Shown here piece after piece: positions 33,531 through 47,884 of a stretch of DNA of 64,000 nucleotides. Numbering within the stretch: the first letter of the stretch is position 1; every line of letters begins with the position of its first letter. The position numbers and the translations under genes are program-made. This stretch comes from Actinosynnema sp. ALI-1.44 (GTDB lineage Bacteria; Actinomycetota; Actinomycetes; Mycobacteriales; Pseudonocardiaceae), in contig NZ_MTQO01000045.1 in assembly GCF_001984155.1 (NCBI RefSeq), forward strand, positions 372,001 to 436,000. The letters run 5' to 3'. Under the pieces are notes generated by a model. It was not told where the DNA came from. It made no database searches and saw only the letters and a list, made by a program, of their open reading frames with translations.

Positions 33531-33689
33531 GCGTCTCTCCACGTGTTCTCGATGCTCATGCCGGGGTCTACACTGTCGCTGACACCTCGGGACCAGTCCC
33601 GAGCACCGGTTTCTGCCACACTCTGTGAACGAACCAGCCGTTGGTCGCGCGAGCACCGGCCCGGCGCCGCTCGCTGCCGGGGAGGCCGC

Positions 33690-34433
33690 ATGGTGACTGC
33701 CGAACTGCGCGATCTCACCGTCCACATCGACACGGGCCAGTGGAGCGAGACCGTCCTCGCCGCGGTGAACCTCACCGTGCCGGAAGGCCAGATGACCGCG
33801 CTGCTCGGCGAATCCGGGTGTGGCAAATCCATGATCGCCGCCGCACTGACTGGCCGGCTACCCGCGTCGGCCCAGATCACCGGGCAAGTGCACATCAACG
33901 ACGCACACGTACAGGACCAGCGTCAGTGGCGGCAACTGCGCGGCCACACCATCGGCCTGGTGCCTCAGTCGGGAGCCACCGCCTTCACCGCGGCAGACCC
34001 AGTCGGCGCGCAGTTACTGGCGCTGGAACGTTCTCATCAGCGATGGACCGTCGACCGCGCGTGCGCCGCGGCCCGCTATCCCGTGGAAGCGTTCGATCTG
34101 TACCCGCAGCAGCACTCCAGCGGGCAGATCCAGCGGGCCGCGCTGGCAGCGGCGCTCCTGCCGGAACCCGATCTGCTCATCGCCGACGAACCCACCGCGT
34201 CCCTGGACACAGCCACCGCGTACGAAGTGTGGGGCACCCTGCGCGAGTACGCGGACGCCGGTGCCGCAGTGCTCGCCATCACGCAGGAAGTGCCCTTGCT
34301 GACCGCCATCGGCGTCGCCGACCGCATGGTGTTCATGCGCGACGGCCGAATCACCGTCGCCGGGCCCGCGACCGAGATCCCCTCCCTCGCCGACCCGTAC
34401 GTACAAGGCTTCTTCCAAGAGATCGGACAGTAA
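33690..34433 (+). CDS. solitary ABC transporter ATP-binding protein (oligopeptide/DppD-like) lacking the H-loop His
   Basis: 247 aa. Walker A GESGCGKS, a Q-loop (LVPQSG), signature HSSGQIQRAALA and Walker B LLIADEPTASLD are present, and resemblance is closest to the Dpp/Opp ATPases. The switch His is replaced by Gln: the segment reads LAITQEV where LLITHD is expected. No permease or binding-protein gene lies nearby and the protein is shorter than usual for DppD, without the C-terminal oligopeptide-binding extension. GGGGAGG precedes the ATG. It may partner with a distant permease or be decaying. Confidence 0.85.
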   Translation: MVTAELRDLTVHIDTGQWSETVLAAVNLTVPEGQMTALLGESGCGKSMIAAALTGRLPASAQITGQVHINDAHVQDQRQWRQLRGHTIGLVPQSGATAFTAADPVGAQLLALERSHQRWTVDRACAAARYPVEAFDLYPQQHSSGQIQRAALAAALLPEPDLLIADEPTASLDTATAYEVWGTLREYADAGAAVLAITQEVPLLTAIGVADRMVFMRDGRITVAGPATEIPSLADPYVQGFFQEIGQ

Positions 34434-34548: not shown

Positions 34549-35835
34549 GTGAAACGCATTCTGATCACCGTGCTGTGCGGGTGCGTGGCCCTCTGCTCGG
34601 TGGCGTTGCTCAGCTCACCGGCAACAGCGGCGACACTGTCCATCATCGCGGCGACGGCCAGCTCGGACGACGGCAACGGACCGGCCAACGCGATCGACGG
34701 CGACTTGTCCACCCGGTGGTCCGCAGCCGGTGACGGGGTCTGGATCCGCTTCGACCTCGGCTCGGTCGCCACCGTCGACTCGGTATCGCTGGCCTGGTAC
34801 GACGGGGACAAGCGGCGGGCGACGTTCGACATCCAGCTGTCCCGCGACGGCTCGGCGTGGTCGACCGTGGTGTCCCGGGCAAGCAGCAGCGGCACCACGC
34901 GCGGTCTCGAAGCGTACGGCTTCACCGGCGGGTCAGCCCGTTACGTGCGAATCGTCGGGTACGGCAATTCTTCCCCGGACTCGGGCAAGTGGACGAGCAT
35001 CACCGAGTCGACCGTATCCGGATCGCCCGGTGTTCCGCCCAAGCAGACCCTCGGAGTCGGCGGTGTGGCGACGCCGCCCGGTGCGGTCCTGGTCGCGGGT
35101 CGAAATTCCAAGTACACCATCGACTCCGGCGGCACGGCGGTCGCGCCCAAGGTCTACGACTGCCAGGGCAACACCATTCGCGGCGGCGTACTGATCAAAG
35201 CCGACCACGTGGTGATCCAGAACTGCCGCGTGGACGCCGCGCAGCAATACGGCATCTACTCGGACAACAACACCGACGTCACGATCCAGAACAACGACAT
35301 CAAGGGCGTCAAGGGTCCCGGTGACCTGAACGCCGTCACGTTCTTCGGCGACGGTCACAGAATCCTCTACAACACCGCCATCAACTTCGTGACCGGCGAC
35401 CCTGGCGACAGCCACACTGACTTCATCCAGACGTGGGTGTCCAGCTCGCACCCGACCGCCAGCGACAACGTGCAGATTCGCGGCAACAAGGCCATCGGCC
35501 CGGCCAACCCCGACCGTGACAACAGCATCCCCAGCATCCACCAGTTCCTGATGGCCGAGGACTACGGCCGCGGCGGCAACACCGGCGGCAACACAGACGG
35601 CATGAAGAACTGGATCGTGGCCGACAACGAGATCGGCGACAGCTGGAACCAGGCGATCAAGATAGACGGGCCGGACAACGTGTCGATCACCCGCAACAAG
35701 TTCGTGGGCTCCTCGACGTACGTCATGGACGTCACCTCGGCCTCGGCCGGTGTGAAGTTCTACAGCGACAACCAGGTGAGCTCCGACTACACATCACTCG
35801 GCATGGCGATCACCGCGGGCCCTGGACCCGCTTGA
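34549..35835 (+). CDS. secreted discoidin plus right-handed beta-helix protein
   Basis: 428 aa from a GTG start (VKRILITVLCGCVALCS); GGAAAGGG lies upstream. Signal peptide ~1-26, discoidin domain ~30-155 related to those in the two enzymes on the other strand, then a parallel beta-helix ~165-428 (repeated strands such as VVIQNCRVDAAQQYGIYSDNN and VTIQNNDIKG). Beta-helix proteins of this kind include uronate epimerases and polysaccharide lyases; no specific catalytic signature is evident. Being the third discoidin protein in 6 kb, it probably acts on the same polysaccharide as its neighbours. Confidence 0.85.
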   Translation: MKRILITVLCGCVALCSVALLSSPATAATLSIIAATASSDDGNGPANAIDGDLSTRWSAAGDGVWIRFDLGSVATVDSVSLAWYDGDKRRATFDIQLSRDGSAWSTVVSRASSSGTTRGLEAYGFTGGSARYVRIVGYGNSSPDSGKWTSITESTVSGSPGVPPKQTLGVGGVATPPGAVLVAGRNSKYTIDSGGTAVAPKVYDCQGNTIRGGVLIKADHVVIQNCRVDAAQQYGIYSDNNTDVTIQNNDIKGVKGPGDLNAVTFFGDGHRILYNTAINFVTGDPGDSHTDFIQTWVSSSHPTASDNVQIRGNKAIGPANPDRDNSIPSIHQFLMAEDYGRGGNTGGNTDGMKNWIVADNEIGDSWNQAIKIDGPDNVSITRNKFVGSSTYVMDVTSASAGVKFYSDNQVSSDYTSLGMAITAGPGPA

Positions 35836-36230: not shown

Positions 36231-36716
36231 TCAACCGGTCCACCAGCTGGTGCGGCGGAGCGCGCCGGACCAGCTGAACGAGAAGTGCACGTGATCGGTG
36301 TGCGGATCCGGGCCGAAGTAGGTCCGCCAGCCCTCGGCGGCGGCGTAGGCCCCCCAGATCCTGTTGTCCCAGATCATGTACATGATGCCGAACCGTCTGG
36401 CCATGGCGTGCTCGTTCCCGCAGGCATCGGCTTCCAGCAGCTGGTTGAGGACCGCGTCGACGGCGTGCCGTTGTGAGTCGGCCGCGATTCCCCAATCCCA
36501 GGCGCGGCCCTCCTTGTGTTCGCTGGTGCCCCTCGACCCACACGGTCTGGTGATGCCACGATCGACCGTGTCCGGGAACCTCGTCAGAATGATCGTGCGG
36601 AAGCCGACCACGCCGGGCTTGGGCACGGGGTGGCATATCCGCTGCTCGTCCAGCGCGGCGTAGTCGTCGATGTGCCCACTGACGTACGACCGTCGCGGGA
36701 ACGTGAAAGACGTCAA
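36231..36716 (-). CDS. ARB_07466-type C-terminal domain protein, last gene of the radical SAM operon
   Basis: 161 aa if the TTG at 36716 is used. It overlaps the S9 peptidase stop as TTGA and has GGGAGAG a few bases upstream. The body (YAALDEQRICHPVPKPGVVG ... EHKEGRAWDWG ... MARRFGIMYMIWDNRIWGAY ... HTDHVHFSFSWSGA) is the domain found at the C terminus of many secreted actinobacterial proteins. His residues in SEHKEGRAWD and HTDHVHFS suggest a metal-dependent peptidase- or lysozyme-like site. No signal peptide is present, so it may be a cytoplasmic single-domain version or a truncated gene. Function in the operon is unknown. Confidence 0.65.
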   Translation of the reverse strand: MTSFTFPRRSYVSGHIDDYAALDEQRICHPVPKPGVVGFRTIILTRFPDTVDRGITRPCGSRGTSEHKEGRAWDWGIAADSQRHAVDAVLNQLLEADACGNEHAMARRFGIMYMIWDNRIWGAYAAAEGWRTYFGPDPHTDHVHFSFSWSGALRRTSWWTG

Positions 36717-38803
36717 CGGCTCTCCCAGTGACCACGCACCGTCTCGAGCAGGAAGGCGAGGAGCTCGGCCCGGAAGGACAGCTTGCCCAGATACGTCGCG
36801 GGCCCCTGGTGGGCACCATCGGACAGTTCCGCGCGCAGCAGGATTCGGTTGCCGTGGCTGTCGGCATGCCGGAGCGCGGCGACCCACTTGGCCGGCTTGT
36901 CCACCATCACCCTCGGGTCCCGGTACGTCGCCGTCACCAGCAGCGGAGGTCTCGGCGCGTCGGACACGCACTCATATGCGACGTAGGACCTCATGCAGTC
37001 GTATGTTGTCCGGTCGCGGGGGTCTCCGTACTCATCCCACTCGTTCGGCGTGAGCGGGATGCCGGGATCCAGCATGGAATTCAGGATGTCGACGGCAGGC
37101 GCCTCGGCGACCACGCCGGCCCACCGATCCGCGTAAGCGGTATAGACCGACGACACCACGATCCCTCCCGCGCACAGCCCCTCGCACACCACACCGTCAG
37201 GCGCCGCCCACCCCTCGGACACCAGGTGATCGCGCACGGCCACCAGGTCCGCGATGGAGTTCACCTTCTTATTGAGCCTCCCATCGAGCCACCACCTCCG
37301 GCCGCGCTCGCCGCCACCCCGCACATGAGCGATGGCACAGACGAAGCCCCGGTTCAGCAAACTCACGAGGACGGGGTCGAACGCCGGGTCCTTGGAGACC
37401 TCATAGGCGCCATAGACGGAGATGTGGCACGGGTTGGTGCCGTCCGGCACCACGTCCGAACGGTGGGCGATCGTCACCGGCACCTCGACACCATCCGCGC
37501 TCCGGGCCCACAACCTGCTGGTGACATAGCGATCGGCGGAGTAGAACCGGGAATCGCCACGATGGACCACTCGGCGTTCACCCGACCGGAGATCGACGCT
37601 CCACCTGCGCGGCGGATGGATCATCGATTCCGAGATCACGTCCACATGGTGGCTCTCATAGGGTGTCTTGAGGTCGAGGAATATGTCGCCGGCGGCCGTG
37701 TCCGGACTCACCACGAAGGACCGGCCGCCCGGGATCACCACCTCGAGAAACTGCCGGGCGTCGTCCTGCCGGCAGGACAGCACCATTCCTTCGGAGAACA
37801 CGTCGACCCGGCTGATGCGAACTCCGTCCCTGGCAGGAACGACTTCCCGCCAGGCGGATCTGTCCGGGGAAGCCACGGGTGCGGCCATCACACGGAACTC
37901 CGGCGCACCGTCGTTCGTCAGGATGATGAACTCCCCGCCGGACGCGCCTCTCACGTGCTCGACGAAGTACTGCAGACCTCGCCGCCGTTCCTTGATCAGC
38001 ATGGGCCGACCGCCACTGGCGGTGGCCGGGATCACGCGCTGCTCCGAGGTGTCGCGGTTCGCCGACGACACCACCACCCAGTCCCTGCTCCTGGTCAGTC
38101 GCAAGTGGACATGATGGCTCCGCTCACGCTCCTCATGGACCAGCACCCCGGGACCGTCGTCACCCGGGCGGTATCGGTAGGCACGGAACGGCCGATTGCA
38201 GTCGTCGATCTCGGTGAAGTAGAACTCCCGCGAATCAGCGCTCCACGCGCTTCCGTAGTACGTCCGCTCGAACCGCACGTCCAGGTCCCGGCCGCTGCGC
38301 AGGTCCCGAAACCGCAGTACATACGCTTCGCCCCCGGTCGTGTCCACCGAGTACGCCAGCCACCGCCCGTCCGGGCTCGGTTCGCACAAGCCCAGACGGA
38401 TGAACTCGCCGCCGGACGCCATCTCGTTCAGGTCGAGCGCGACCGTGGATGTGCCGTCACTCGTCCGTCGTTGTACGAGTCGCCTGTGGCGGCCGCCTTT
38501 CGGCACGCTCTCCATGGAGTACTCGTAGCACCCCAGTAGCCGAGGCGGTCCCGCGTACCCTGTGGGCGCGACGGTCAACGCTTCCGATACGAGGTCCCGA
38601 ACCAGTTTCCTCGACCGCAGCGTCTGGCTGTCGTAGTACGAGCGCTCGTCACGCAGGTAGGCGACGAAGTCGGGGGCATCGTGATCCCGCATCCACGCGT
38701 ACGGGTCGTTTCGTCGTTCGCCGTGCAGGTCGACGACATCGTCCACCCGTTTGGCGATGGGCGGGCCTGGGGACACGTTGTCCGTGTCTGTTCGGCTATC
38801 CAC
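36713..38803 (-). CDS. prolyl-oligopeptidase family (S9) protein with Cys at the nucleophile position
   Basis: 696 aa from the GTG at 38803, preceded by GGGAGA. The N-terminal beta-propeller (~60-410) is followed by the alpha/beta hydrolase domain. In the nucleophile elbow, where oligopeptidase B-like enzymes have G-x-S-x-GG, this protein reads GLCAGG, with Cys544 encoded by TGC at 37172-37174. The other triad parts can be matched: Asp in YRDPRVMVDKPAKW and His in GAHQGP. Thus it is either a Cys-dependent peptidase or acyl transferase/ligase, or a non-hydrolytic relative. It overlaps the MFS stop by 8 bp. In this operon it may trim or ligate the modified peptide. Confidence 0.88.
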   Translation of the reverse strand: MDSRTDTDNVSPGPPIAKRVDDVVDLHGERRNDPYAWMRDHDAPDFVAYLRDERSYYDSQTLRSRKLVRDLVSEALTVAPTGYAGPPRLLGCYEYSMESVPKGGRHRRLVQRRTSDGTSTVALDLNEMASGGEFIRLGLCEPSPDGRWLAYSVDTTGGEAYVLRFRDLRSGRDLDVRFERTYYGSAWSADSREFYFTEIDDCNRPFRAYRYRPGDDGPGVLVHEERERSHHVHLRLTRSRDWVVVSSANRDTSEQRVIPATASGGRPMLIKERRRGLQYFVEHVRGASGGEFIILTNDGAPEFRVMAAPVASPDRSAWREVVPARDGVRISRVDVFSEGMVLSCRQDDARQFLEVVIPGGRSFVVSPDTAAGDIFLDLKTPYESHHVDVISESMIHPPRRWSVDLRSGERRVVHRGDSRFYSADRYVTSRLWARSADGVEVPVTIAHRSDVVPDGTNPCHISVYGAYEVSKDPAFDPVLVSLLNRGFVCAIAHVRGGGERGRRWWLDGRLNKKVNSIADLVAVRDHLVSEGWAAPDGVVCEGLCAGGIVVSSVYTAYADRWAGVVAEAPAVDILNSMLDPGIPLTPNEWDEYGDPRDRTTYDCMRSYVAYECVSDAPRPPLLVTATYRDPRVMVDKPAKWVAALRHADSHGNRILLRAELSDGAHQGPATYLGKLSFRAELLAFLLETVRGHWESR

Positions 38804-40112
38804 CGGCGGGTCTCCCTGTTCGATGCTGACGAGAATCCCCGTCAGCCGCCACCTCTCCACCGAACGTGCGCACACCCCGGACCAGGAATGGGAGGCCTGT
38901 GGTCAGCAGCAGTGCGGCCAGGCACACCACGCTCCCCGCCGGGATACCGATGAGGGCGACGACGGGCGCGGTCATGGCGAGCCCGACGGGCTCGAGGCCG
39001 AGTTGGCCGACGTAGTCCACCGAGACGACCCTCGCGAGTGCCTGTTCCGGCACCCTGCGCTGCAGTGCACTCGTCCACAGCACGGCGAAGATCGTTCCCC
39101 CCGCCCCCGACACCATGGCGCTTCCCATCAGCAGCGGCACTGGGAGGTGGAAAACCAGTACCAGCAGGGTAGGCAACGACGTCAGCATGCTGAGGAGCGC
39201 AACGGTGCCCGGCTCCCGCGGAGTCCAGCGTGCGACGAGGAAGGCGCCGGCCAGCGAGCCGACCGACTGCAACGCCAGAATGACCCCGTAGGCGTCCAGC
39301 GCACCGTAGTCGCGCAACGCCAGAGGCACCAGAATGGTCATGGGCGCGTGGACTAGCAGTACCTGCGACCCACCCTGGATGATCACCGTCGCCACCCACG
39401 GCCGGTCCCGGAGGACTCTCACGGTCTCCGACCCGCCCCGAAGGAGCGTGGGCTTCGGTGTCCGATCGTCCCCGGTCGCGCCTTCGCGAGGCCTGCCGGT
39501 CCGGATCGTCAGCAGGATCACGGCGGAGACGACGAAGGTCACGCCGTCGATGGCGAACGCGATGCGTGGATCGAACGCCGCCGCCAGCACACCTCCGAGT
39601 GGCGGTCCGACGAGCGTCCCGACCTTGGCGGTCATGACGTTGAGCGCGTTGGCCGGCTGCAGATCCTCATCGGGCACCAGTGACGGCAACAGTGCCCGCG
39701 CCGCCGGCGTGAACATCGCCGCACCCGCTCCCATGGCGAGAGCGAGCAGCACGAACACGGGCAGGCCGATGAAGGGCGCCAGCAACGCGAACCCGAACGC
39801 GGCACCTGCACGCAACAGATCGGACGCCGCCATCACCCTCGTACGACGCATGCGGTCCGCGAGGTAGCCACCCACCAGGACAAGTCCTATGAGGCCGATG
39901 CTCTGCGCACTCAGCACCACACCGAGTTGCACGCCGTTCCCGTCCTGGGACAGGAGCAGCAACGTGAGTGCGACCGGTGAGATGCCATTGCCGAGTGCGC
40001 TGAGCGCTTGCCCCACCCACAGTTTCCGGAAGTCCTGATGCCGGAGCGGTGAGAAGACGCGTGCGACGCTCTCCAGCCTACTCAGTGTCCTCCCCCCTTG
40101 TCCCGAACACAT
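38796..40112 (-). CDS. MFS exporter of the radical SAM operon
   Basis: 438 aa from the ATG at 40112. Twelve helices with the loop motif GGYLADRMRRTRVM place it in the enterobactin-exporter-like/MFS_3 group (VFSPLRHQDFRKLWVGQALS at the start). The ATG overlaps the SUMF1-type gene by 31 bp. A CTG at 40085 overlapping that gene's stop as CTGA would give the more family-typical LSRLESV start. Position in the operon, between modification and peptidase genes, suggests export of the product or self-protection. Confidence 0.87.
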   Translation of the reverse strand: MCSGQGGRTLSRLESVARVFSPLRHQDFRKLWVGQALSALGNGISPVALTLLLLSQDGNGVQLGVVLSAQSIGLIGLVLVGGYLADRMRRTRVMAASDLLRAGAAFGFALLAPFIGLPVFVLLALAMGAGAAMFTPAARALLPSLVPDEDLQPANALNVMTAKVGTLVGPPLGGVLAAAFDPRIAFAIDGVTFVVSAVILLTIRTGRPREGATGDDRTPKPTLLRGGSETVRVLRDRPWVATVIIQGGSQVLLVHAPMTILVPLALRDYGALDAYGVILALQSVGSLAGAFLVARWTPREPGTVALLSMLTSLPTLLVLVFHLPVPLLMGSAMVSGAGGTIFAVLWTSALQRRVPEQALARVVSVDYVGQLGLEPVGLAMTAPVVALIGIPAGSVVCLAALLLTTGLPFLVRGVRTFGGEVAADGDSRQHRTGRPAGG

Positions 40113-40936
40113 CGGATACCGATGCCCAGGGAGCACCACCACGGCGGATGGTGTCCCCGCTCCGCGGCACGCAGCGAGAAACCGAAGTAGCCGAACGACC
40201 CACCACGGCATACCTTGTCGCCCGGAGGCACCCCGTCACCGTTGCGGGCGTATGGCGAACCGGCGTACAGGCGGTAGTCGTCGGCACACCATTCCCAGAT
40301 GTTTCCCGCCATGTCGAGGATCCCGTAGGGCGACGCACCCTCGGGAAAGCTCCCGACAGGTGTCGTCAAACAACGACTCTGCCACGGCCGCGCTCCGTTG
40401 AAGCTTTCCAGCCAGTCGGCGAGGTCGGTGATCTCGCGACCCAGCCAGTAGTCGGCGCTGTTGCAGAGACCCTGCCGGAACTCCTCTCCCCAGGGAAACC
40501 GCCGTTCGTCCGTGCCCCTGGCCGCCTTCTCCCATTCCACTTCGGTGGGAAGTCGCATGCCTGCCCACCGCGCGTAGGCATCCGCCTCCCACCACGTCAC
40601 ACCGACGACCGGGTGCTCGTCCCGGGCCCACTCCTCCCACCGCGGGTCTTCCCAGAACATCGGCCGACGACGCCGTACGGTCGACAACCAGCGGCGGCCG
40701 CCGGGCGACCACCAGCGCTCGTCGCCGTAGCCGTTCGCGGACACGAACAGCCGGTACTGGGAGTTGGTCACGGGTACGCGGCAGACGTCCACCGCGTCGA
40801 CCCACACCGTCTCGGCACCCACTTCGTGCCGGAACCAGTCGGCCGACATGCCGCGGTAGCGGCTACGCAGCCATGCCAGTTCGTGCGTCGTGGAACCCCT
40901 CGTGTACGTGCCGGCGGGCACCGTTACCTTGTCCAC
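40082..40936 (-). CDS. SUMF1/formylglycine-generating-enzyme-fold protein without the FGE cysteine pair
   Basis: 284 aa from the GTG at 40936 (VDKVTVPAGTYTRGS, the normal family start). Core motifs are present: HPVVGVTWWEADAYARWAGMRLPTEVEWEKAARG, ILDMAGNIWEWCADDY and VCRGGSF near the end. In true FGE a Cys pair lies in the segment after RGGSW; here it reads GYFGFSLRAAERG without Cys, so aldehyde formation by the FGE copper chemistry is unlikely. Other members (EgtB, PvdO, cyclase-like proteins) do different chemistry on amino acids or peptides. It begins 7 bp after the SPASM protein stop. Confidence 0.87.
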   Translation of the reverse strand: MDKVTVPAGTYTRGSTTHELAWLRSRYRGMSADWFRHEVGAETVWVDAVDVCRVPVTNSQYRLFVSANGYGDERWWSPGGRRWLSTVRRRRPMFWEDPRWEEWARDEHPVVGVTWWEADAYARWAGMRLPTEVEWEKAARGTDERRFPWGEEFRQGLCNSADYWLGREITDLADWLESFNGARPWQSRCLTTPVGSFPEGASPYGILDMAGNIWEWCADDYRLYAGSPYARNGDGVPPGDKVCRGGSFGYFGFSLRAAERGHHPPWWCSLGIGIRCVRDKGGGH

Positions 40937-40943
40937 CGCGGAG

Positions 40944-42407
40944 CTACCGGGACCTTGCCGACCGCAGTCCGACCTGGCCGAGCGAGATGAACGTCGTCGA
41001 ACCCCGGGTGGGCTTCGGCGGGCTGGCACTCGCAGCGAGCTCCTCGCTCGTCAGTGGCCGCATCCCGAGTGCCTCGAGTTCGGTACGAAAGCGCACGAGG
41101 TGCCTCTTGAAGTGAAACTCCGCCAGGTACTGCTTCGTGCAGAACCGTAGGTCGTGGCGTCCGGTGCGCACTGCCGACTCGTACGCACATCCTCCCGCGC
41201 AGACGGGTATGTACGCACACTCCTCCTCATAGCAGTCCGTCAGGCGTTTCGCCGCGTTCATCTGTTCGTCGTACGCGGCGGTGTCGTACTCCTCCTCGAA
41301 CACGGTGCCGACGGCGTAGTCCTTCCGGCCGACGAAGCTGATGCACTTGTAGATCTCGCCTTCCGGACCGATGAGCACACCGTGTTCGGACGAGAACATG
41401 CACGGCGTCGTGTGTGCCGTGTCGCTGGACACGGCGATGTCGCGTTCTCGTGCCTGGAGCATGAGTTGCACGTACGCGTCGGCCAACTCGACACTCTCCG
41501 GGGGAATCGGCAGTCCCTTGTCGTGCGCGACCTTGCTGTCCGGGAACTGGTAGGCGATCGCCTCCAGTTTGACGTTGACCCGGTCAGCGAGACCCTCGTG
41601 GTGCAGAGTGTCGAACAGGTCCGCGATGAACTCCCTGTTCTGCCGGTCGAAGTTCACCTTGACCGTGACGTTCCTGATGTGTCGCACCGCGATCTTGATG
41701 GCCGACAGTGACTCGTCGAACGACGGTTGCCCCCGGTGCCCGACACGCCGCTTGTCATGGATCTCGGCCGGCCCGTCGAGAGAGATCTGGATCTGCGTCA
41801 ACTTCCGCGCGGCGAGCTCCCGCGCCAGGTCGTCGGTGAGCAGCAGCCCGTTGGACGAACAGTAGAACTCACCTCGCGCACCGTGTCGTTCGGTCAGCCG
41901 GGCGAACCCGTCCATGATGGCGAACAGAATCTTCGGCACCATCAACGGTTCACCCCCGAACAGGCCAGGGTAGATCTCCCTGATGCCGTCTCTGGTGATA
42001 CGGCGTTCCATCCAGCGCAGGCATCCGTCGACCACGTCGGGAGTCATCGTCTTGCCGCGCACGCCTGACTCGTAGCAGTAAGTACAGGCGATGTTGCACC
42101 CGGAGGTCACGGCGAGCAGGGGAAGGATCCGGCCCGGATTGCGGCGTTGCCGGTCGAACGTCGCCTGGAAGCGCGCCGCTTGGTCCTCCTCGGTGGGCAC
42201 GATGATGCGGTCCTTGGCCAATCGGTCGATCGCGGCCCTCACGTCACCCGCGCTGTCGCTCGAGACCATGCCCGCCATGATGCGCCGCCAGTCGGCGTCC
42301 CGGACGGTCATGCACTTCGAGGTCTCGGTGTTGAAGATCAGGTTGTGCGACGGGAGGTCCCGGTCGCCGAGGTTGCGCACGACAGTGAACTGGCTCAGTT
42401 TCCACAC
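40944..42407 (-). CDS. radical SAM/SPASM maturase-type protein
   Basis: 487 aa from a GTG start within the preceding small gene. The radical SAM cluster motif is CNIACTYCYE (Cys104, Cys108, Cys111), followed by GGEPL. A C-terminal SPASM/twitch region has about seven Cys (in TPCMFSS, IYKCISF, DCYEEECAYIPVCAGGC and RFCTKQY), for auxiliary clusters. The N-terminal ~90 residues (FTVVRNLGDRDLPSHNLIFN) match the domain seen in peptide-modifying SPASM enzymes. Such enzymes install thioether, C-C or epimer modifications in ribosomal peptides. The overlapping 61-aa product upstream is the obvious partner or substrate. Confidence 0.92.
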   Translation of the reverse strand: MWKLSQFTVVRNLGDRDLPSHNLIFNTETSKCMTVRDADWRRIMAGMVSSDSAGDVRAAIDRLAKDRIIVPTEEDQAARFQATFDRQRRNPGRILPLLAVTSGCNIACTYCYESGVRGKTMTPDVVDGCLRWMERRITRDGIREIYPGLFGGEPLMVPKILFAIMDGFARLTERHGARGEFYCSSNGLLLTDDLARELAARKLTQIQISLDGPAEIHDKRRVGHRGQPSFDESLSAIKIAVRHIRNVTVKVNFDRQNREFIADLFDTLHHEGLADRVNVKLEAIAYQFPDSKVAHDKGLPIPPESVELADAYVQLMLQARERDIAVSSDTAHTTPCMFSSEHGVLIGPEGEIYKCISFVGRKDYAVGTVFEEEYDTAAYDEQMNAAKRLTDCYEEECAYIPVCAGGCAYESAVRTGRHDLRFCTKQYLAEFHFKRHLVRFRTELEALGMRPLTSEELAASASPPKPTRGSTTFISLGQVGLRSARSR

Positions 42408-42580
42408 GACAGCTCGCCTCCGTCCGTGGTACGCAGTCGAAAGGAATCGATCTCGACAGGCTCGCCGTCACACTCGAGTTGTACGACGCGCAAGATCGCA
42501 CGAAGGCGCTCCGCGATCAGGTCACCCAACGCGGCTTCGGACACCGCACTCGATTCCGTTGAACTCTCCGCTTCACTCAT
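42395..42580 (-). CDS. 61-aa small protein carrying the shared DG-P-V-SFrL module; candidate precursor or partner
   Basis: 61 aa, ATG at 42580 with an ideal GGAGGAAGAC ribosome site. It overlaps the peptidase stop upstream and the radical SAM start downstream (13 bp). Residues 1-18 are Ser/Glu-rich. Residues 21-50 form a module (helix, then QLECDGEPVEIDSFRLR) with 19 of 30 residues identical to residues 60-89 of the PDZ radical SAM protein of the same operon. The tail is TTDGGELSCGN with a Cys three residues from the end. It could be a RiPP precursor (module as leader, tail as core) or an adaptor for the maturase. Confidence 0.8.
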   Translation of the reverse strand: MSEAESSTESSAVSEAALGDLIAERLRAILRVVQLECDGEPVEIDSFRLRTTDGGELSCGN

Positions 42581-44690
42581 GTCTTCCTCCAGTCGGACCG
42601 TCCACCGGCGACATCGCGAACAACCGGGAGTCAGGATCGACCGTGACCCGAACGGGTTCCGCGTCCAGCCGGACGGTCAGCCAGCCGACACCGGCGTCGA
42701 CGTCGACGTCGTGGCGCACCGTTGTGCCTGTGGCGTCCTCGATCTCCACCACCACCGGTACGCCGCAGGTATGGGTGCCTCGCAGTGTTGTCTCGACCGT
42801 CGTTTCGATCCCCCTCCGTGATCTCCGTGTCGCCACGTCGCCAACGGCCGGCTCGAGCACGCCGTCCGCGTGCACCCACTGGTTCACGAACCACCGGACA
42901 GAGCTGCCGTGAAACCAGCTCGCGAGCGCGAAGAAGGTGTACGTGTCGAGCTCGTGGCGGCTGCCGTACTCGAAGGCCGCGCGAAGGAGCTCGCCGAAGG
43001 CGGTCTCCCCCAGGAGTTGCCGCAGCATGCCCATGACGAACCCACCCTTGACCCGCAGGGCGAACATGGCGACGGTGTCGGTCCGTCCGGCCAGCCGATC
43101 CATGCCGTGGCGTGCCGACACACCGCCGTCGACGTCCCTCAGTGCCGCCAGCGCACGCGCCCGGTACCCGCGGTGCTCTCCGCGATCCTCGAGCAGATGA
43201 TGTGTGTACTCCGCGAGAGCCTCGCCGAGCCAGTGGTTCTCCGGCGTGAAGCGGGCCTTGACGCCCCACCACAGGTGTCCGACCTCGTGCGCGATCTGCC
43301 TGATCTGGACGGCGTCCCTGGCCAGACCCGAAGCGATCCGGAGGTAGTTCTGCCTGGCGTACGCATACCGGGACCTCGGACGGTCGACCACGACGATCGG
43401 CGGGATCGGCAGCGGGCACAACAACTCGCTCCAGCACTCCGCCGCACGCGATGCCCAGCGCGCCGCCGCGCCGAACAGCAGATCCTCGCGGGAGCTCACC
43501 ACGGTGACCCGCGACGGCGTCCGTCCGCCGGTGAGCGTCGCCCTGTCCGTACCCCGAGTCGCCAGGACTCCGACGGTCCCCGGTCTGTCCTCGGTTGTGC
43601 CGACCCGCAGGACGTACCCGGGAGGAGCGTCGAGCCGGACGTCCCAACGCAGCGGAACCGGAGGTACCGGGAGCGGCAGCCACCCGGAGATCCCGTCGAG
43701 TTCCATCTCCGTCGGTGACAGGTGTACCGCCGGCGGAAGCGGCACACCACGCAGCCGGATCCGAACCTCGTCGTCACCACCTGCCGTGTCCGGGAGGTTG
43801 ACCAGGACGGCGGGTGCGACGACAAAAACCCCGGAACCCCGGGGATCGAACTCGGCGGTACTGGCGATCTCACCGTCCATCCGGATGTCGTAGCCCGCGT
43901 TCACCGCGATCGCCTGTTGCCGGTAACCACTCGGGAACTTCAGGCGAACCGCCAGATCCACGGTGCCGGGAGAGACCGTTCCCCGGACGACCGCTCGGCC
44001 GGCTGGCGGTGTCCGCAGGACGTCTTCCCATCCCGGGACGGACGCCAGGCACTGCCGGCGAAGACGGGCGCGGGACAGCATGTCTGTGGCCAGCGACGGG
44101 TTTCCGGACCGGGACAGGACGCGGGACAGGATGACGAACGGCTCGTGCTTGTGGGGCGCGCGCCGGATCGCCTCGCCCAACAAGGCCCACGCCCGCACGG
44201 GATCGGCTTCCGCGCCCGCGCTCACCAGGTTGACCAGGGCGTCACCGTCGACGGGATCGATGCGGGCCGCCTGGTGGAACCGCTCGATCGCTTCGCCCTT
44301 CCGCCCCGCACGCCACAGCACCACCCCTTCGGCGTTCAGTGCCCGGCTGCGCCCGGGTCCGGTCCGTCCGACCCGCCCCAGTCTTGCCAGGCCGGCCGCG
44401 ATCGCGCCTTGCTCGGCGAGCACCCTGCCCATCATGTAGTCGATCTCGTCATCCGGAGCACCTTCTCGGCACGCGCGGTTCAACCACGTCGCGCCGTCGC
44501 CGATCTCGCCCAGTGACAGCAACGCACTCGCCACCTTCAGCTCCACCGTCCCGGCCGGGAGGGCATCGGCAGGCAGGCTCTGCCAGAGCATGGCCGCCTG
44601 TCTGTAGAGACCGTCCACATGCCACGCCTCGGCCAGGGCGGCTGCGGCGGCACGGTCGGGTACGTCGATGAACCGCTGCTCGGTGGTCAT
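42573..44690 (-). CDS. TPR-containing gluzincin (M1-like) metallopeptidase-type protein
   Basis: 705 aa. The N-terminal ~220 residues are tetratricopeptide-like helical repeats (e.g. GRKGEAIERFHQAARIDPVDGDALVNL). A beta-rich section ~230-400 follows, then an M1-like catalytic domain with the zinc motif HEVGH at 468-472 and Glu490 in WLGEALAEY. The spacing after HExxH is 17 rather than the canonical 18 residues. The rest resembles the M1 helical part (RVKGGFVMGMLRQLLGE). It could cleave a leader peptide, with the TPR part recruiting substrate. Next gene overlaps by 8 bp; the upstream radical SAM stop is 19 bp away. Confidence 0.85.
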   Translation of the reverse strand: MTTEQRFIDVPDRAAAAALAEAWHVDGLYRQAAMLWQSLPADALPAGTVELKVASALLSLGEIGDGATWLNRACREGAPDDEIDYMMGRVLAEQGAIAAGLARLGRVGRTGPGRSRALNAEGVVLWRAGRKGEAIERFHQAARIDPVDGDALVNLVSAGAEADPVRAWALLGEAIRRAPHKHEPFVILSRVLSRSGNPSLATDMLSRARLRRQCLASVPGWEDVLRTPPAGRAVVRGTVSPGTVDLAVRLKFPSGYRQQAIAVNAGYDIRMDGEIASTAEFDPRGSGVFVVAPAVLVNLPDTAGGDDEVRIRLRGVPLPPAVHLSPTEMELDGISGWLPLPVPPVPLRWDVRLDAPPGYVLRVGTTEDRPGTVGVLATRGTDRATLTGGRTPSRVTVVSSREDLLFGAAARWASRAAECWSELLCPLPIPPIVVVDRPRSRYAYARQNYLRIASGLARDAVQIRQIAHEVGHLWWGVKARFTPENHWLGEALAEYTHHLLEDRGEHRGYRARALAALRDVDGGVSARHGMDRLAGRTDTVAMFALRVKGGFVMGMLRQLLGETAFGELLRAAFEYGSRHELDTYTFFALASWFHGSSVRWFVNQWVHADGVLEPAVGDVATRRSRRGIETTVETTLRGTHTCGVPVVVEIEDATGTTVRHDVDVDAGVGWLTVRLDAEPVRVTVDPDSRLFAMSPVDGPTGGRHE

Positions 44691-44709
44691 GGGGGAAGCA
44701 CGATGTGCG

Positions 44710-46467
44710 CTAGAAGACCAGCGGGGAACACTCGACGATCTCGACAGGCACCCCGGTGAGTCGCTCGATGTCGGTCCAGGGCTTCCCGGTCAGGTCACGA
44801 ACCCACGGCGACGTCGCGAAGGGCGATGCCGGGATCAGCACGAGATCCGGGGTGTCTCCCGTCTCCTCGACGAACTGTCCTATCGCATGGACGAAATCCT
44901 CCACGACCAGGAGATCACCGATATTGATGTTGCCGCCGAAGTACCTGTTCTCCGCGACCCGCACGTGCACGTCGAATCCGGCGAACGCCCCGGTCTTGTC
45001 GATCATGTACCGCAGGATCGGAAGGATGAGCTCCGAGGTCAGTACCAGCGCTCGGCGCGCTTTCCGGTGTTCCAGGATCCGGCGGGCGGACTTCAGCGAC
45101 GAGTAACGCAAGGTGTCGGTGACGATCAGGCCGAGCACGAAGTCGTCGAACGACGAGATCTGGCCGTACGGATAGGTGCCGATCGACCTGGGATCGTGGC
45201 GTTCCAGCGTGTAGGTGCGGTCCACACCGTCACGACGCACACCCAACAGGACGGTCTCGCGGCCGCGGGAGTGGACCTGAGCGGTCATCCCGACCACTCC
45301 GGGCGGCCGGAACATGTTCTTCGCCCCGCGCCGCAGCTCACTGATGAGCTGCATGCGGGAGCCGATCGCGACACCGTTCACCGAATGGATCCGGTCACCC
45401 CGGCGGATCCCGGCCAGATCGGCAGGCGAGTCGCGGATCACCCCGTCGACGACCGCCTCCGTGTCGCGCCGCACGAAGGAGTTCGGCTCGATCAGGATGG
45501 GAATGGGGTATCGGTCGCGGATGCGTTCGACCTCGGCGACCACCTTCGGCCAGTAGTCCGCGATGCGGAAGTCCTCCCAGTCACCTGGGAGGTACCGGGA
45601 GTTTCCCCCGAGGCAGACCCGCACCACCGCGGCGCGGTTCTCGGCCACGTGCGCGATCGTGTTCTCCATGTCGGAGAACGGGATGGACGGCCACATGACC
45701 AGATTGGTCATGAACGGGATGCGGTGCTGCGCGAGCAGTTCGACAGCGCGAACCGCCGTATCTCCTTTTCGGTCACGGAGAACCGTACGCCGGACGTACG
45801 GATCCACGCTGTAGATGGAGAGGTTGAAGAAGAGTGGCTGCAGGTCCCCGAGACCTTTCACCACCTCCTCGGTCAGGTAGGACCCGTTGGTGACGAACGA
45901 GATGAGCTCGTCCGGCGCTTTCTCACGCATGAGGCGCAGGTAGTCGATCGCGCGCGGGTTCGCGAACGGCTCGTTGATCGCCGTCCGCAGGGAGAATATG
46001 CCACGACCACTCCGTGGGTCGTAGTGCCGCAGCCTGGTGACGATCTCCTCGTGGGTGGCCATGCGTGGCATGTTCTGGATCGGCAGATCCGCCGGGTTCC
46101 CTTTTTCGTAGCAGAACTCACAACTGAAGTTGCACACCGACGACAGGTGCCAGAATATGTCGGACAGGCTTGTCGGGTAGTCGGCCCAGTCCGCGATCTC
46201 ACGAAGCCGGAAGCCGTCCACCTCGACAGCCTGCCCGTCACACTCCAGCTGGGCGACCTTCAGTATCGCCTGCAACTCTTTCCGGATCGCCTCGATCCGG
46301 GGTTCGGTCAGGATGATTCCGTCGACACTCTCGTAACCTCGCGGCACCCTGCGACGGCGCGTCGGGGTGGGCAGGAACGACCGGCCCGTCTTGTGCCCGG
46401 GAGACCGATCCCGCACAGGTTCGACACGGTCGCCGGCCGTCGTGGCGTCGAGAGTGCGTCCACCCAT
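44710..46467 (-). CDS. radical SAM protein with N-terminal shared module, internal PDZ and C-terminal DUF512-like domain
   Basis: 585 aa. A basic N-terminal tail, then the shared 30-residue module at 60-89 (QLECDGQAVEVDGFRLR), radical SAM core with CNFSCEFCYE (Cys112, Cys116, Cys119), a PDZ-like segment around residue 320-365 (DSPADLAGIRRGDRIHSVNG), and a C-terminal region (ENRYFGGNINIGDLLVVEDF ... PDLVLIPASPF) matching DUF512. PDZ-radical SAM-DUF512 proteins are known from clostridia and cyanobacteria with unknown function, there with PDZ first. No SPASM Cys cluster is seen. The ATG at 46467 is 8 bp after the stop of the 78-aa gene; GGAG lies 10 bp upstream. Confidence 0.88.
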   Translation of the reverse strand: MGGRTLDATTAGDRVEPVRDRSPGHKTGRSFLPTPTRRRRVPRGYESVDGIILTEPRIEAIRKELQAILKVAQLECDGQAVEVDGFRLREIADWADYPTSLSDIFWHLSSVCNFSCEFCYEKGNPADLPIQNMPRMATHEEIVTRLRHYDPRSGRGIFSLRTAINEPFANPRAIDYLRLMREKAPDELISFVTNGSYLTEEVVKGLGDLQPLFFNLSIYSVDPYVRRTVLRDRKGDTAVRAVELLAQHRIPFMTNLVMWPSIPFSDMENTIAHVAENRAAVVRVCLGGNSRYLPGDWEDFRIADYWPKVVAEVERIRDRYPIPILIEPNSFVRRDTEAVVDGVIRDSPADLAGIRRGDRIHSVNGVAIGSRMQLISELRRGAKNMFRPPGVVGMTAQVHSRGRETVLLGVRRDGVDRTYTLERHDPRSIGTYPYGQISSFDDFVLGLIVTDTLRYSSLKSARRILEHRKARRALVLTSELILPILRYMIDKTGAFAGFDVHVRVAENRYFGGNINIGDLLVVEDFVHAIGQFVEETGDTPDLVLIPASPFATSPWVRDLTGKPWTDIERLTGVPVEIVECSPLVF

Positions 46468-46474
46468 GATCGTT

Positions 46475-46711
46475 CTACTCCGGATCATCAGGGAATATGG
46501 CAATGTGCTTTTCTGGAGCTCGCATCAGAGCAAAGCTGCTCACCTTCACCGGCTGTCCGTCGTGCAACGGCACACATAATCTCAACAGTTGCTCCCACTG
46601 CACGCGAAGCAGCTCCACAGTGGGATCGGCGATCACCTCGGACGCGGGTTTCTCGTCGAGCAAGAATCGCCACACGTATGGCTCGCCGCTCTGGTCATCG
46701 GGCAGGGACAA
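46475..46711 (-). CDS. 78-aa small protein with a diverged copy of the shared module
   Basis: 78 aa from a TTG start; TTTGGAGGGCGA directly upstream gives a strong ribosome site, which decides for TTG over a GTG at 46675. Residues 34-63 align without gaps to the modules of the 61-aa protein and the PDZ radical SAM protein (LHDGQPVKVSSFALM; 9 of 30 identical to the latter). The tail RAPEKHIAIFPDDPE has no Cys. It lies 8 bp upstream of the radical SAM gene. Either substrate or adaptor role is possible. Confidence 0.72.
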   Translation of the reverse strand: MSLPDDQSGEPYVWRFLLDEKPASEVIADPTVELLRVQWEQLLRLCVPLHDGQPVKVSSFALMRAPEKHIAIFPDDPE

Positions 46712-46770
46712 TCGCCCTCCAAATGCACGCGGTGGCAGATCCCGATCAGTTCGGCGCCGATCGCCCCCGG

Positions 46771-47043
46771 TCAGGGTGCCGCCTGGGCGGCGCCCTTCTG
46801 CAGGCTCACCCGCTCGGCGTGTTGATACAACGTTCCCATGTCGACCTTGCCATCGGACACGAGTCCCTCGATGAGCGAGACAAGGCCAGCCTGGTCGAAA
46901 TCATAGAAGCCGATCAGTTCCGCCGGTGATATCTCTTCCACCCGCGCAGACGGAACCAGGCGGCAACCCGCTGCCATGAGGTCCACATCGAACTCATCTT
47001 CGCTGGAGGCCAATTCATTGAGCAGGTCCCGATTTTCGGACAT
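46771..47043 (-). CDS. 90-aa small acidic protein, first gene of the radical SAM operon; candidate precursor
   Basis: 90 aa starting MSENRDLLNELASSEDEFDVD; AAAGGGG lies 9-10 bp upstream of the ATG at 47043. The N-terminal half is acidic, with a single Cys (MAAGCRLV). The rest is a helical stretch (LIGFYDFDQAGLVSLIEGLVSDG) and a QHAERVSLQKGAAQAAP tail. I recognise no family. As the promoter-proximal small gene it is the classical place for a RiPP precursor, but the sequence also fits a small helical regulator or chaperone. Confidence 0.65.
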   Translation of the reverse strand: MSENRDLLNELASSEDEFDVDLMAAGCRLVPSARVEEISPAELIGFYDFDQAGLVSLIEGLVSDGKVDMGTLYQHAERVSLQKGAAQAAP

Positions 47044-47086: not shown

Positions 47087-47100
47087 GTGAGGTACCTCAC
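47087..47100. promoter_or_regulatory. perfect 14-bp palindrome upstream of the radical SAM operon
   Basis: GTGAGGTACCTCAC lies 44 bp upstream of the first start codon of the operon, just downstream of an AT-rich ATGCAAATTA stretch that may contain the -10 region. It is the only strong dyad in this gap and a good candidate operator. No regulator gene is found in the operon itself. Confidence 0.6.
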
Positions 47101-47131: not shown

Positions 47132-47535
47132 TCAACAGCCCTTCACGGCGCCGGCGAGGCCGCTGACGATCCGGCGTTCGAAGAGGGAGAAGAAGATGAG
47201 TGTGGGGATCATCGACAGCGAGACGAACGCCAGCACGCGCGCGGTGCCGATCGAGGACTGCGACGCGCACGACCGCACCCCGAGCGGCAGCGTGTACAAG
47301 TCGTTGTCGCCGAGCAGGAACAGCGGCAGCAGATAACTGTTCCAGCTCGCCACGAACGCCAGGATCCTACGGTCATGACACCGGACAGAGACGGCGGGAC
47401 CACCCATCCGGACGAAGAAGCCGAGGGCCGCCTCCTCCAGTTCCTTCGGGATGGCGCGCAGAAATGGCACGAGAATGATGACGGTGGTCGGCATGGCGAA
47501 CGCGAACGGCCATCCTCCAGATTTCCTCCACCCCA
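47132..47535 (-). pseudogene. C-terminal remnant of a sugar ABC transporter permease (MalG/AraQ type)
   Basis: The frame reads AFAMPTTVIILVPFLRAIPKELEEAA, then FFVRM, then AFVASWNSYLLPLFLLGDND and SLFERRIVSGLAGAVKG at the end, the conserved C-terminal half of carbohydrate permeases. Between FFVRM and ILAF the proper sequence VVPPSLSGVMTVG is found one frame over, so an inserted G and a later 1-bp loss break the gene. The EAA-loop segment after ELEEAA has also lost about seven codons, and the N-terminal half is missing. Confidence 0.8.
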
Positions 47536-47884
47536 ACAGGTGTGAAACGAGACAAGCACCATCCATCCTCTTTGGACAAATAGGGCATGCGCATCCGCAT
47601 CTACTCTCTCACTTGGCTGCAACCCTCGCTGCTCGTTGCGTCCCAGCGCTGCGTGCTGCGGTGGTGTTATCGGGGTTGTCGCCACTGGTGATCGAGAGTG
47701 TGACCGACAAGGGTGAACGCATCGACGTGCTGCCCGCCGCAAGTCCGACACCGTGGCGTCAGGCCCGGACCGAGCGGATCGTGCGACGGGCCGGGTGGGT
47801 CGCTCATGTGTTCCGCCTCCTGGTGGCGTGCGCTTTGCCGGATATGACGACGGACCACAGCCGGATGTGAGGTCACCGAGCGCC
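47536..47884. other. gene-poor stretch with a possible ISL3 transposase start fragment
   Basis: No intact gene. On the plus strand around 47655-47735 a frame reads LSGLSPLVIESVTDKGERIDVL, like the beginning of ISL3-family transposases. It then loses similarity, suggesting a short broken fragment. It separates the permease remnant from the flavin reductase gene. Confidence 0.35.

What the first reader, a model, noticed from the sequence alone, without database searches (positions are those of the whole stretch)
36231..47043. Undescribed ten-gene radical SAM operon resembling a RiPP or protein-modification system
Ten minus-strand genes, overlapping or separated by at most 60 bp, encode a 90-aa acidic protein, a 78-aa protein, a PDZ/DUF512 radical SAM protein, a TPR-gluzincin, a 61-aa protein, a SPASM radical SAM protein, a SUMF1-fold protein, an MFS exporter, an S9 protein with a Cys nucleophile and an ARB_07466-type domain protein. 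Two unrelated radical SAM enzymes plus two peptidase-type proteins, an exporter and small proteins fit a modified-peptide pathway. I know of no described class with this gene set.
Basis: partly seen in the sequence, partly recalled or inferred. Interest (0 to 1): 0.92.

Follow-up and report, generated by a model that had tools for sequence, protein, structure and literature searches.

The report
Vitamin-B12 radical-SAM peptide-modifying operon
A tight ten-gene bacterial operon is built around a rare radical enzyme, predicted to use vitamin B12, that comes with small add-on modules; some of its distant relatives sit in gene clusters that look peptide-modifying, so it offers candidate targets for an enzyme family whose targets are unknown.

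Summary
The ten minus-strand genes are there (36231-47043), tightly packed. The PDZ/DUF512 radical SAM protein is, by sequence and by the predicted fold of a homolog, a class-2 cobalamin-dependent radical SAM enzyme (best fold matches: DUF512 protein 9CG2 and protein-arginine methylase Mmp10). The 78-aa and 61-aa proteins are copies of an undescribed ~50-aa alpha-beta-beta module that this enzyme also carries at its N-terminus. Each of the 24 homologous loci in which I found the module has exactly two copies, fused to the enzyme in 20 and split onto a small gene in 4. The ten-gene set was found nowhere else. In 19 of 24 loci a methylmalonyl-CoA-mutase-type subunit lies in the fetched stretch. 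The window's enzyme groups outside the mutase-linked clade, with Sinorhizobium sojae; a Stahlbacteria enzyme also lies outside, in a locus with two tandem precursor-like peptides, an RRE-like protein, two M16 peptidases and an MFS exporter. Best reading: a RiPP-type or protein-modification pathway whose key enzyme is a DUF512 cobalamin radical SAM methylase working as a two-module complex, with the orphan 90-aa protein (less likely the 61-aa) as substrate. No cofactor, substrate or product has been shown. RiPP reading about 0.5; the module result is firm.

The parts
46771..47043 (-). 90-aa acidic orphan protein (pI 4.1), first gene of the operon; best candidate substrate/precursor
   Evidence: ORF, pI; no Pfam/NCBIfam match; no relative in plasmids or 59 other family genomes; a small gene also lies just upstream of the rSAM unit in L016 and L047, without detectable similarity to this one
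46475..46711 (-). 78-aa protein = free-standing type-1 module (YVWRF... LLRLCVPLHDGQPVKVSSFAL), probable partner of the PDZ/DUF512 rSAM
   Evidence: separate 81-87-aa homologs next to rSAM1 in L032, L034, L043, L047; fused in the other 20 of 24 loci
44710..46503 (-). PDZ/DUF512 radical SAM protein (rSAM1): type-2 module, rSAM core CNFSCEFC, PDZ, DUF512 cobalamin domain; start uncertain
   Evidence: Pfam, homologs, AF2 model of homolog L039 and fold matches
42573..44690 (-). TPR-gluzincin (M1-like, HEVGH + Glu)
   Evidence: Pfam M1 2.6e-5, 24.4 bits against cut-off 27.7, and TPR; motif
42395..42580 (-). 61-aa protein = second type-2 module copy with tail TTDGGELSCGN; duplicate of the rSAM1 N-terminus; alternative substrate or partner of the SPASM rSAM
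   Evidence: 61% aa identity over 31 residues and 74% nt identity over 57 bp to the rSAM1 N-terminus
40944..42407 (-). SPASM radical SAM protein, RiPP-maturase type
   Evidence: NCBIfam best geopeptide maturase 188 bits (cut-off 400), TIGR04463 169.6 (525); best solved relative 5wgg 2e-20 (CteB/SCIFF name recalled)
40082..40936 (-). FGE-sulfatase (SUMF1-fold) protein; start uncertain
   Evidence: Pfam 2e-51; closest solved structure CalU17 6vqp 1e-38
38796..40112 (-). MFS exporter (start uncertain)
   Evidence: Pfam MFS_1 1.6e-39, MFS_3 7e-28
36713..38803 (-). S9 oligopeptidase-B-type protein with Cys in place of the catalytic Ser
   Evidence: Pfam S9; aligned to oligopeptidase B 7zjz 8e-91; Cys against Ser of GGSAGG in 7ywp, 7ne7, 7ne4
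36231..36716 (-). 161-aa protein with LAS/M15-like metal-site motif, TTGA-coupled to the S9 gene
   Evidence: sequence; no family match; motif name recalled
47087..47100 (.). 14-bp perfect palindrome GTGAGGTACCTCAC upstream of the 90-aa gene; possible operator
   Evidence: once in the 11.7-Mb genome; the control pattern read backwards also occurs once, so no enrichment

Best explanation
A RiPP-type (or dedicated protein-modification) operon whose signature enzyme is a class-2 (DUF512) cobalamin-dependent radical SAM methylase. SHOWN by sequence or model: the enzyme's architecture is [module]-rSAM-PDZ-DUF512; its homologs always come with two alpha-beta-beta modules, the second supplied here by the 78-aa protein; the 61-aa protein is a third module copy. 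INFERRED: the 78-aa protein docks on the rSAM1 N-terminus to complete a two-module platform; the PDZ domain and platform present a ribosomal substrate, most likely the 90-aa protein; rSAM1 C-methylates it with methylcobalamin; the SPASM enzyme adds a second modification (its relatives make thioether or similar links, recalled), perhaps with the 61-aa module as its own adaptor or substrate; the M1-like and S9 proteins trim or ligate the product (an S9 with a Cys nucleophile could favour ligation over hydrolysis, by analogy with subtiligase, recalled); the MFS protein exports it. The cluster is probably a horizontal acquisition.
Against: The ten-gene set recurs nowhere, so linkage of all genes to one pathway rests on operon structure in a single genome. 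The 90-aa protein shows no leader/core split and no relatives. In 19 of 24 homologous loci a mutase subunit is near, where a peptide product is unlikely. No RRE was demonstrated in the window. L016 has no peptidase or exporter that I recognised; L047's M16 and MFS genes could be chance neighbours, and its RRE-like match is 32.6 bits against a full-length cut-off of 562. In one search, 9cg1 (15.1) is tied with NifB (15.3-15.7) and SkfB (15.5). The tree has long branches (window 1.12, L016 1.79), and the branch separating L047 from the rest is not starred (93/87). L016's two modules were picked by eye before the HMM was built from them and others.
Confidence: 0.5

Rival explanations
1. Protein-maturation operon without a peptide product: rSAM1, the SPASM enzyme and the FGE-like protein modify or activate a resident protein (for example the S9 or M1-like enzyme), as Mmp10 modifies MCR; the small proteins are subunits only.
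For: Two of three small proteins are enzyme modules; in 19 of 24 loci a mutase subunit lies near the enzyme, which suggests modification of a resident enzyme; Mmp10 is among the nearest folds.
Against: Exporter and three peptidase-like genes in the operon; precursor-like tandem peptides in L047; window enzyme lies outside the mutase clade.
Confidence: 0.25
2. The 61-aa protein is itself the precursor: a leader that evolved from the enzyme's own N-terminal module followed by a short core TTDGGELSCGN cross-linked at its Cys by the SPASM enzyme.
For: Akin to the rSAM1 module (61% over 31 aa); placed directly before and overlapping the SPASM gene; tail carries a Cys near acidic residues; SPASM relatives act on Cys-containing peptides (families; chemistry recalled).
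Against: One locus only, so no variable core can be seen; a simple truncated duplicate of the enzyme N-terminus explains it as well; the tail is 11 residues.
Confidence: 0.15
3. Patchwork of unrelated genes brought together by transfer, not one pathway; only the 78-aa/rSAM1 pair is a unit.
For: Apart from an MFS in L047, none of the other genes was found with rSAM1 in 24 loci; a frame that looks like a degraded ABC permease lies just upstream (by eye).
Against: Continuous genes in one direction with start/stop overlaps; a module copy between the M1-like and SPASM genes ties both halves together.
Confidence: 0.1

Closest known systems
DUF512 cobalamin radical SAM proteins csDUF512 (9CG1) and pfDUF512 (9CG2)
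   Same: rSAM core plus C-terminal DUF512 cobalamin-binding fold; csDUF512 also has a PDZ domain (PMC11659888 passages)
   Different: PDZ lies between rSAM and DUF512 here (model residues about 377-470 of L039), N-terminal in csDUF512; no module was found in the five DUF512 loci L028, L049, L051-L053
Mmp10 (MCR arginine methylase)
   Different: no PDZ and no module known to me (recalled); one archaeal substrate
Geopeptide / TIGR04463 / CteB-type SPASM maturases
   Same: the SPASM enzyme is nearest to these
   Different: 188 bits against a cut-off of 400 for the best family; no Cys-rich precursor seen next to it
RiPP leader proteases AplP (M1), PttP1/PttP2 (M16 pair), FlaP (prolyl oligopeptidase by the title of the reference cited for it)
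   Same: same peptidase families in the window (M1-like, S9) and in L047 (two M16) (PMC10885120 passages)
   Different: lanthipeptide pathways; the S9 here has Cys for Ser; the M1-like match is under the Pfam cut-off
CalU17 (calicheamicin cluster, recalled) FGE-fold protein
   Same: closest solved relative of the FGE-like protein
   Different: not from a RiPP cluster (recalled); the paper library holds no paper naming it

Membership tests
Class-2 (DUF512/Mmp10-type) cobalamin radical SAM enzymes | CX3CX2C rSAM motif | tested here: met
   CNFSCEFC; the three Cys are invariant in 13 aligned homologs; Pfam Radical_SAM 6e-18
Class-2 (DUF512/Mmp10-type) cobalamin radical SAM enzymes | C-terminal DUF512 domain with the 4-stranded Cbl fold | tested here: met
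   Pfam DUF512 29.7 bits against cut-off 25, residues 476-563; fold of homolog L039, not of the window protein itself, matches 9cg2, 9cg1, Mmp10
Class-2 (DUF512/Mmp10-type) cobalamin radical SAM enzymes | binds cobalamin and makes methylcobalamin, SAH and 5'-dA | not testable with these tools
   needs protein
RiPP biosynthetic gene cluster | precursor peptide with leader and variable core | tested here: inconclusive
   no relatives of the 90-aa protein; 78-aa and 61-aa are modules; two precursor-like paralogs exist in the relative L047
RiPP biosynthetic gene cluster | maturase of a RiPP-type family | tested here: inconclusive
   the SPASM enzyme is nearest to RiPP maturase families, but below every curated cut-off shown (best 25 of 71 families); nearest solved structure 5wgg
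RiPP biosynthetic gene cluster | leader protease and exporter | tested here: inconclusive
   M1-like, S9 and MFS present; no activity shown
RiPP biosynthetic gene cluster | RRE | not tested
   no RRE family appeared in the window scans, but the SPASM N-terminus was not folded; an RRE-like protein is in L047
Geopeptide maturase TIGR04280 | score above curated cut-off | tested here: not met
   188 of 400 bits
SenA / EgtB sulfoxide or selenoxide synthases | score above curated cut-off | tested here: not met
   SenA 117.4 of 420 bits, EgtB 115.6 of 360
Formylglycine-generating enzyme | FGE-sulfatase domain and copper-binding Cys pair | tested here: inconclusive
   Pfam domain met (175.4 bits, cut-off 23.3); Cys pair judged absent from recall only, not aligned to an FGE
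Oligopeptidase B (S9A) | catalytic Ser-Asp-His and family cut-off | tested here: not met
   Ser position is Cys, Asp and His aligned; PRK10115 318 of 1313 bits
M1 metallopeptidase | HEXXH plus Glu zinc site and Pfam cut-off | tested here: inconclusive
   HEVGH and Glu present; 24.4 bits against 27.7

The most novel reading that the evidence does not exclude
A new class of RiPP in which a split-module DUF512 cobalamin radical SAM methylase acts on a leader-less or module-led ribosomal peptide, a SPASM enzyme cross-links it, and a natural Cys-nucleophile S9 enzyme works as a peptide ligase or macrocyclase; the same enzyme family in anaerobes would methylate acyl-CoA mutases.
Probability: 0.25. 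Interest if true: 0.85.

Novelty: new variant of a known kind. Interest (0 to 1): 0.62.

Why it matters
DUF512 radical SAM proteins (about 6000 sequences) were shown in 2024 to bind cobalamin, but the substrate of the enzyme studied is unknown (PMC11659888, passages). This locus and its relatives give a short list of candidate substrates, the first that I found in the searches made: a 90-aa and a 61-aa protein here, two tandem peptides in Stahlbacteria, and mutase subunits in anaerobes. It also points to an undescribed two-copy module that seems obligatory for this enzyme subfamily, and to a natural S9 protein with a cysteine at the nucleophile position.

Tried and rejected

Limits: the genome-contig scan used two peptide patterns and kept the best 80 of 95 relatives, so homologs can be missed (79 loci, 20 with modules). 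With the tools used, the genome search reached only the window's own phylum. The samples overlap. The 24 loci are those in which a module was found, so 'two in 24 of 24' means that none had just one; eight loci found by both routes were counted once; the HMM was built from 14 module sequences of which several lie in these loci. DUF512 loci without modules (L028, L049, L051-L053) were used only as outgroup; L054-L108 had only partial similarity and no module and were dropped. The tree uses 17 of the 24 loci (left out: L017, L018, L022, L023, L024, L027, L048). L048 is cut by its contig end; stretches of L032, L037, L038, L047 and L048 are short.
Full report
Observation. The ten genes are present on the minus strand between 36231 and 47043. 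Pfam gives S9 (two domains), MFS, FGE-sulfatase, two Radical_SAM proteins, one of them with PDZ and DUF512, and TPR plus a sub-threshold M1 match; the three small proteins and the last gene match nothing significant. Neighbouring genes mostly overlap or nearly touch; the S9 stop and the next start overlap at TTGA. The start of the PDZ/DUF512 gene is uncertain.

The signature enzyme. In 396 genomes sampled from the phylum (own included), 13 match the PDZ/DUF512 protein (rSAM1) at 1e-10: the own genome, 11 full-length relatives with modules, and one DUF512 protein without them. Close relatives: 1 of 59 others has a weak partial match (29% over 135 residues, E 2e-4) and none a full one. No match in 248 other genomes of the family at 1e-10 or 396 others of the order at 1e-20. 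Among plasmids only Sinorhizobium sojae pSJ05684b matches, with three different queries (30% over 90% for the window protein). A scan of one genome for each of about 85,000 species found 95 relatives and kept 79 loci, 20 of them with the architecture described below. Together these make 24 distinct loci: Solincola/Geothermincola-type actinobacteria, Dehalococcoidia and other Chloroflexota, deltaproteobacteria, Desulfobacteraceae and Desulfarculaceae, Peptococcaceae, Stahlbacteria, Sinorhizobium. Most of these groups are anaerobes (recalled).

The module. The first surprise was a match of the rSAM1 N-terminus to the 61-aa gene (59% over 32 residues). Homologs showed that a segment of about 50 residues with the pattern LLxxVxLxxxGxxVxVDGFRL occurs twice in each of the 24 loci in which it was found at all: as two tandem N-terminal copies in 20, and with the type-1 copy on a separate 81-87-aa gene in 4 (L032, L034, L043 upstream, L047 downstream). 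The window's 78-aa protein is that separate type-1 copy; the rSAM1 N-terminus is type 2; the 61-aa protein is a second type-2 copy, 61% identical over 31 residues to the rSAM1 module and 74% over 57 bp in DNA. An HMM built without window sequences hits exactly these three among 1126 six-frame segments of the window, the next at E 4.1; an HMM of type-1 copies scores the 78-aa protein best, one of type-2 copies the rSAM1 N-terminus and then the 61-aa protein. Modelled as a tandem pair without the enzyme, each copy is an alpha-beta-beta unit with block-mean pLDDT of 84-96; the best Foldseek PDB match has E 0.51, and no Pfam family matches more than one of 19 rows.

Contexts. In 18 of 24 loci a methylmalonyl-CoA-mutase-type large subunit, and in 19 of 24 at least one mutase subunit, lies in the fetched stretch, at up to about 10 kb; in 13 the enzyme gene lies between the two subunits; the five without are L016, L032, L037, L047 and L048, some of them on short contigs. 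A tree of 17 of these loci plus the window and 5 DUF512 outgroups puts 15 rows (13 with a mutase subunit) in one group (96/99), pairs the window with Sinorhizobium (96/93) and leaves Stahlbacteria outside (93/87); the window and Sinorhizobium branches are long. The relatives outside the mutase group differ in context. Stahlbacteria L047 has an M16 peptidase, a 127-aa protein matching the N-terminal part of the ThiF-like bacteriocin maturation family TIGR03693 (2.6e-8, 32.6 bits against a full-length cut-off of 562; that this part is RRE-like is recalled), two tandem paralogous peptides of 58 and 64 aa (38% identical, E 3e-13 in a five-sequence comparison), each with its own GGAGG-type ribosome site, rSAM1, the 87-aa module, a second M16 peptidase and an MFS exporter. 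Sinorhizobium L016 has an 80-aa gene, rSAM1 with two modules, a B12 radical SAM protein nearest to the MCR glutamine C-methyltransferase, an aldo-keto reductase, a methyltransferase and a second B12 radical SAM protein nearest to ApyD, all below curated cut-offs, with transposase-like genes on both sides (by eye). The window has the 90-aa gene in the same upstream place. M1 and M16 proteases and FlaP are known in RiPP leader removal (PMC10885120, passages).

The other genes. The SPASM protein is closest to RiPP maturases (geopeptide, TIGR04463, CefB, Clo7bot, PapB), below the curated cut-offs, and to 5wgg in the PDB; no relative at 1e-30 in 373 other class genomes, and one weak partial match in 99 other close relatives. 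The FGE-fold protein is closest to CalU17; from recall it lacks the copper-binding Cys pair of true FGEs, which I did not test by alignment. The S9 protein aligns over most of its length with oligopeptidase B; opposite the Ser of GGSAGG (7ywp, 7ne7, 7ne4) it has Cys. The last gene shows a LAS-like motif (recalled). No match to the M1-like, SPASM, FGE or S9 protein at 1e-6 was found in any of the 24 stretches; an MFS match was, in L047 (26%), and L030 has an MFS-like gene by eye.

Interpretation. I consider a RiPP-type or protein-modification pathway with a cobalamin methylase at its centre the best reading (0.5): enzyme family and module pairing are well supported, substrate and order of steps are inferred. 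The main rival is maturation of a resident protein, in line with the mutase operons and with Mmp10 (0.25). The 61-aa protein as an enzyme-derived leader with a Cys core is possible (0.15). Searches for papers joining DUF512 with radical SAM (11 papers), DUF512 with RiPP (3), PDZ and radical SAM with methylmalonyl-CoA mutase (0), radical SAM and methylmalonyl-CoA mutase (17, listing of 10 seen), or this kind of gene set (0 and 0) showed no description of such a system; of these I saw listings and, for PMC11659888 and PMC13331322, abstract or passages only (open-access library).

Verdict. Observation confirmed, interpretation partly supported. New variant of a known kind: a DUF512 cobalamin radical SAM subfamily with a split module, in a RiPP-like operon found in one genome so far.

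Noticed in passing
L017-L027, L030, L031, L033, L034, L038, L043, L044, L046: A module-bearing DUF512 radical SAM gene lies near methylmalonyl-CoA-mutase-type genes in 19 of 24 loci, in 13 between the two subunits; the paper searches (listings) showed nothing about it.
   Followed up: partly
L047:6085-6519: Two tandem small peptides with similar N-terminal and more variable C-terminal parts, beside an RRE-like protein and two M16 peptidases: a likely RiPP cluster in Stahlbacteria.
   Followed up: partly
window 47135-47608, minus: Reading frame that looks like the C-terminal part of a sugar ABC-transporter permease, apparently a remnant just upstream of the operon (by eye).
   Followed up: no
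window 47087-47100: 14-bp perfect palindrome in front of the operon, preceded on the minus strand by a TTGACA hexamer (by eye); single copy in the genome.
   Followed up: partly
window 32301-33725 (-) and 34549-35835 (+): Two secreted-type proteins share a similar discoidin-like domain beyond the operon's 3' end (by eye).
   Followed up: no
L031, from about 5.2 kb upstream of rSAM1: Glycyl-radical-activase-like gene, small cysteine-containing subunit-like genes and a mutase B12 subunit near rSAM1, reminiscent of anaerobic alkane or aromatic activation (likeness recalled).
   Followed up: no
L120:7983-13047: Methylovirgula pHY1 carries a radical SAM protein (27% to the SPASM protein) near a CbpA/CbpB pair and pqq genes.
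   Followed up: no
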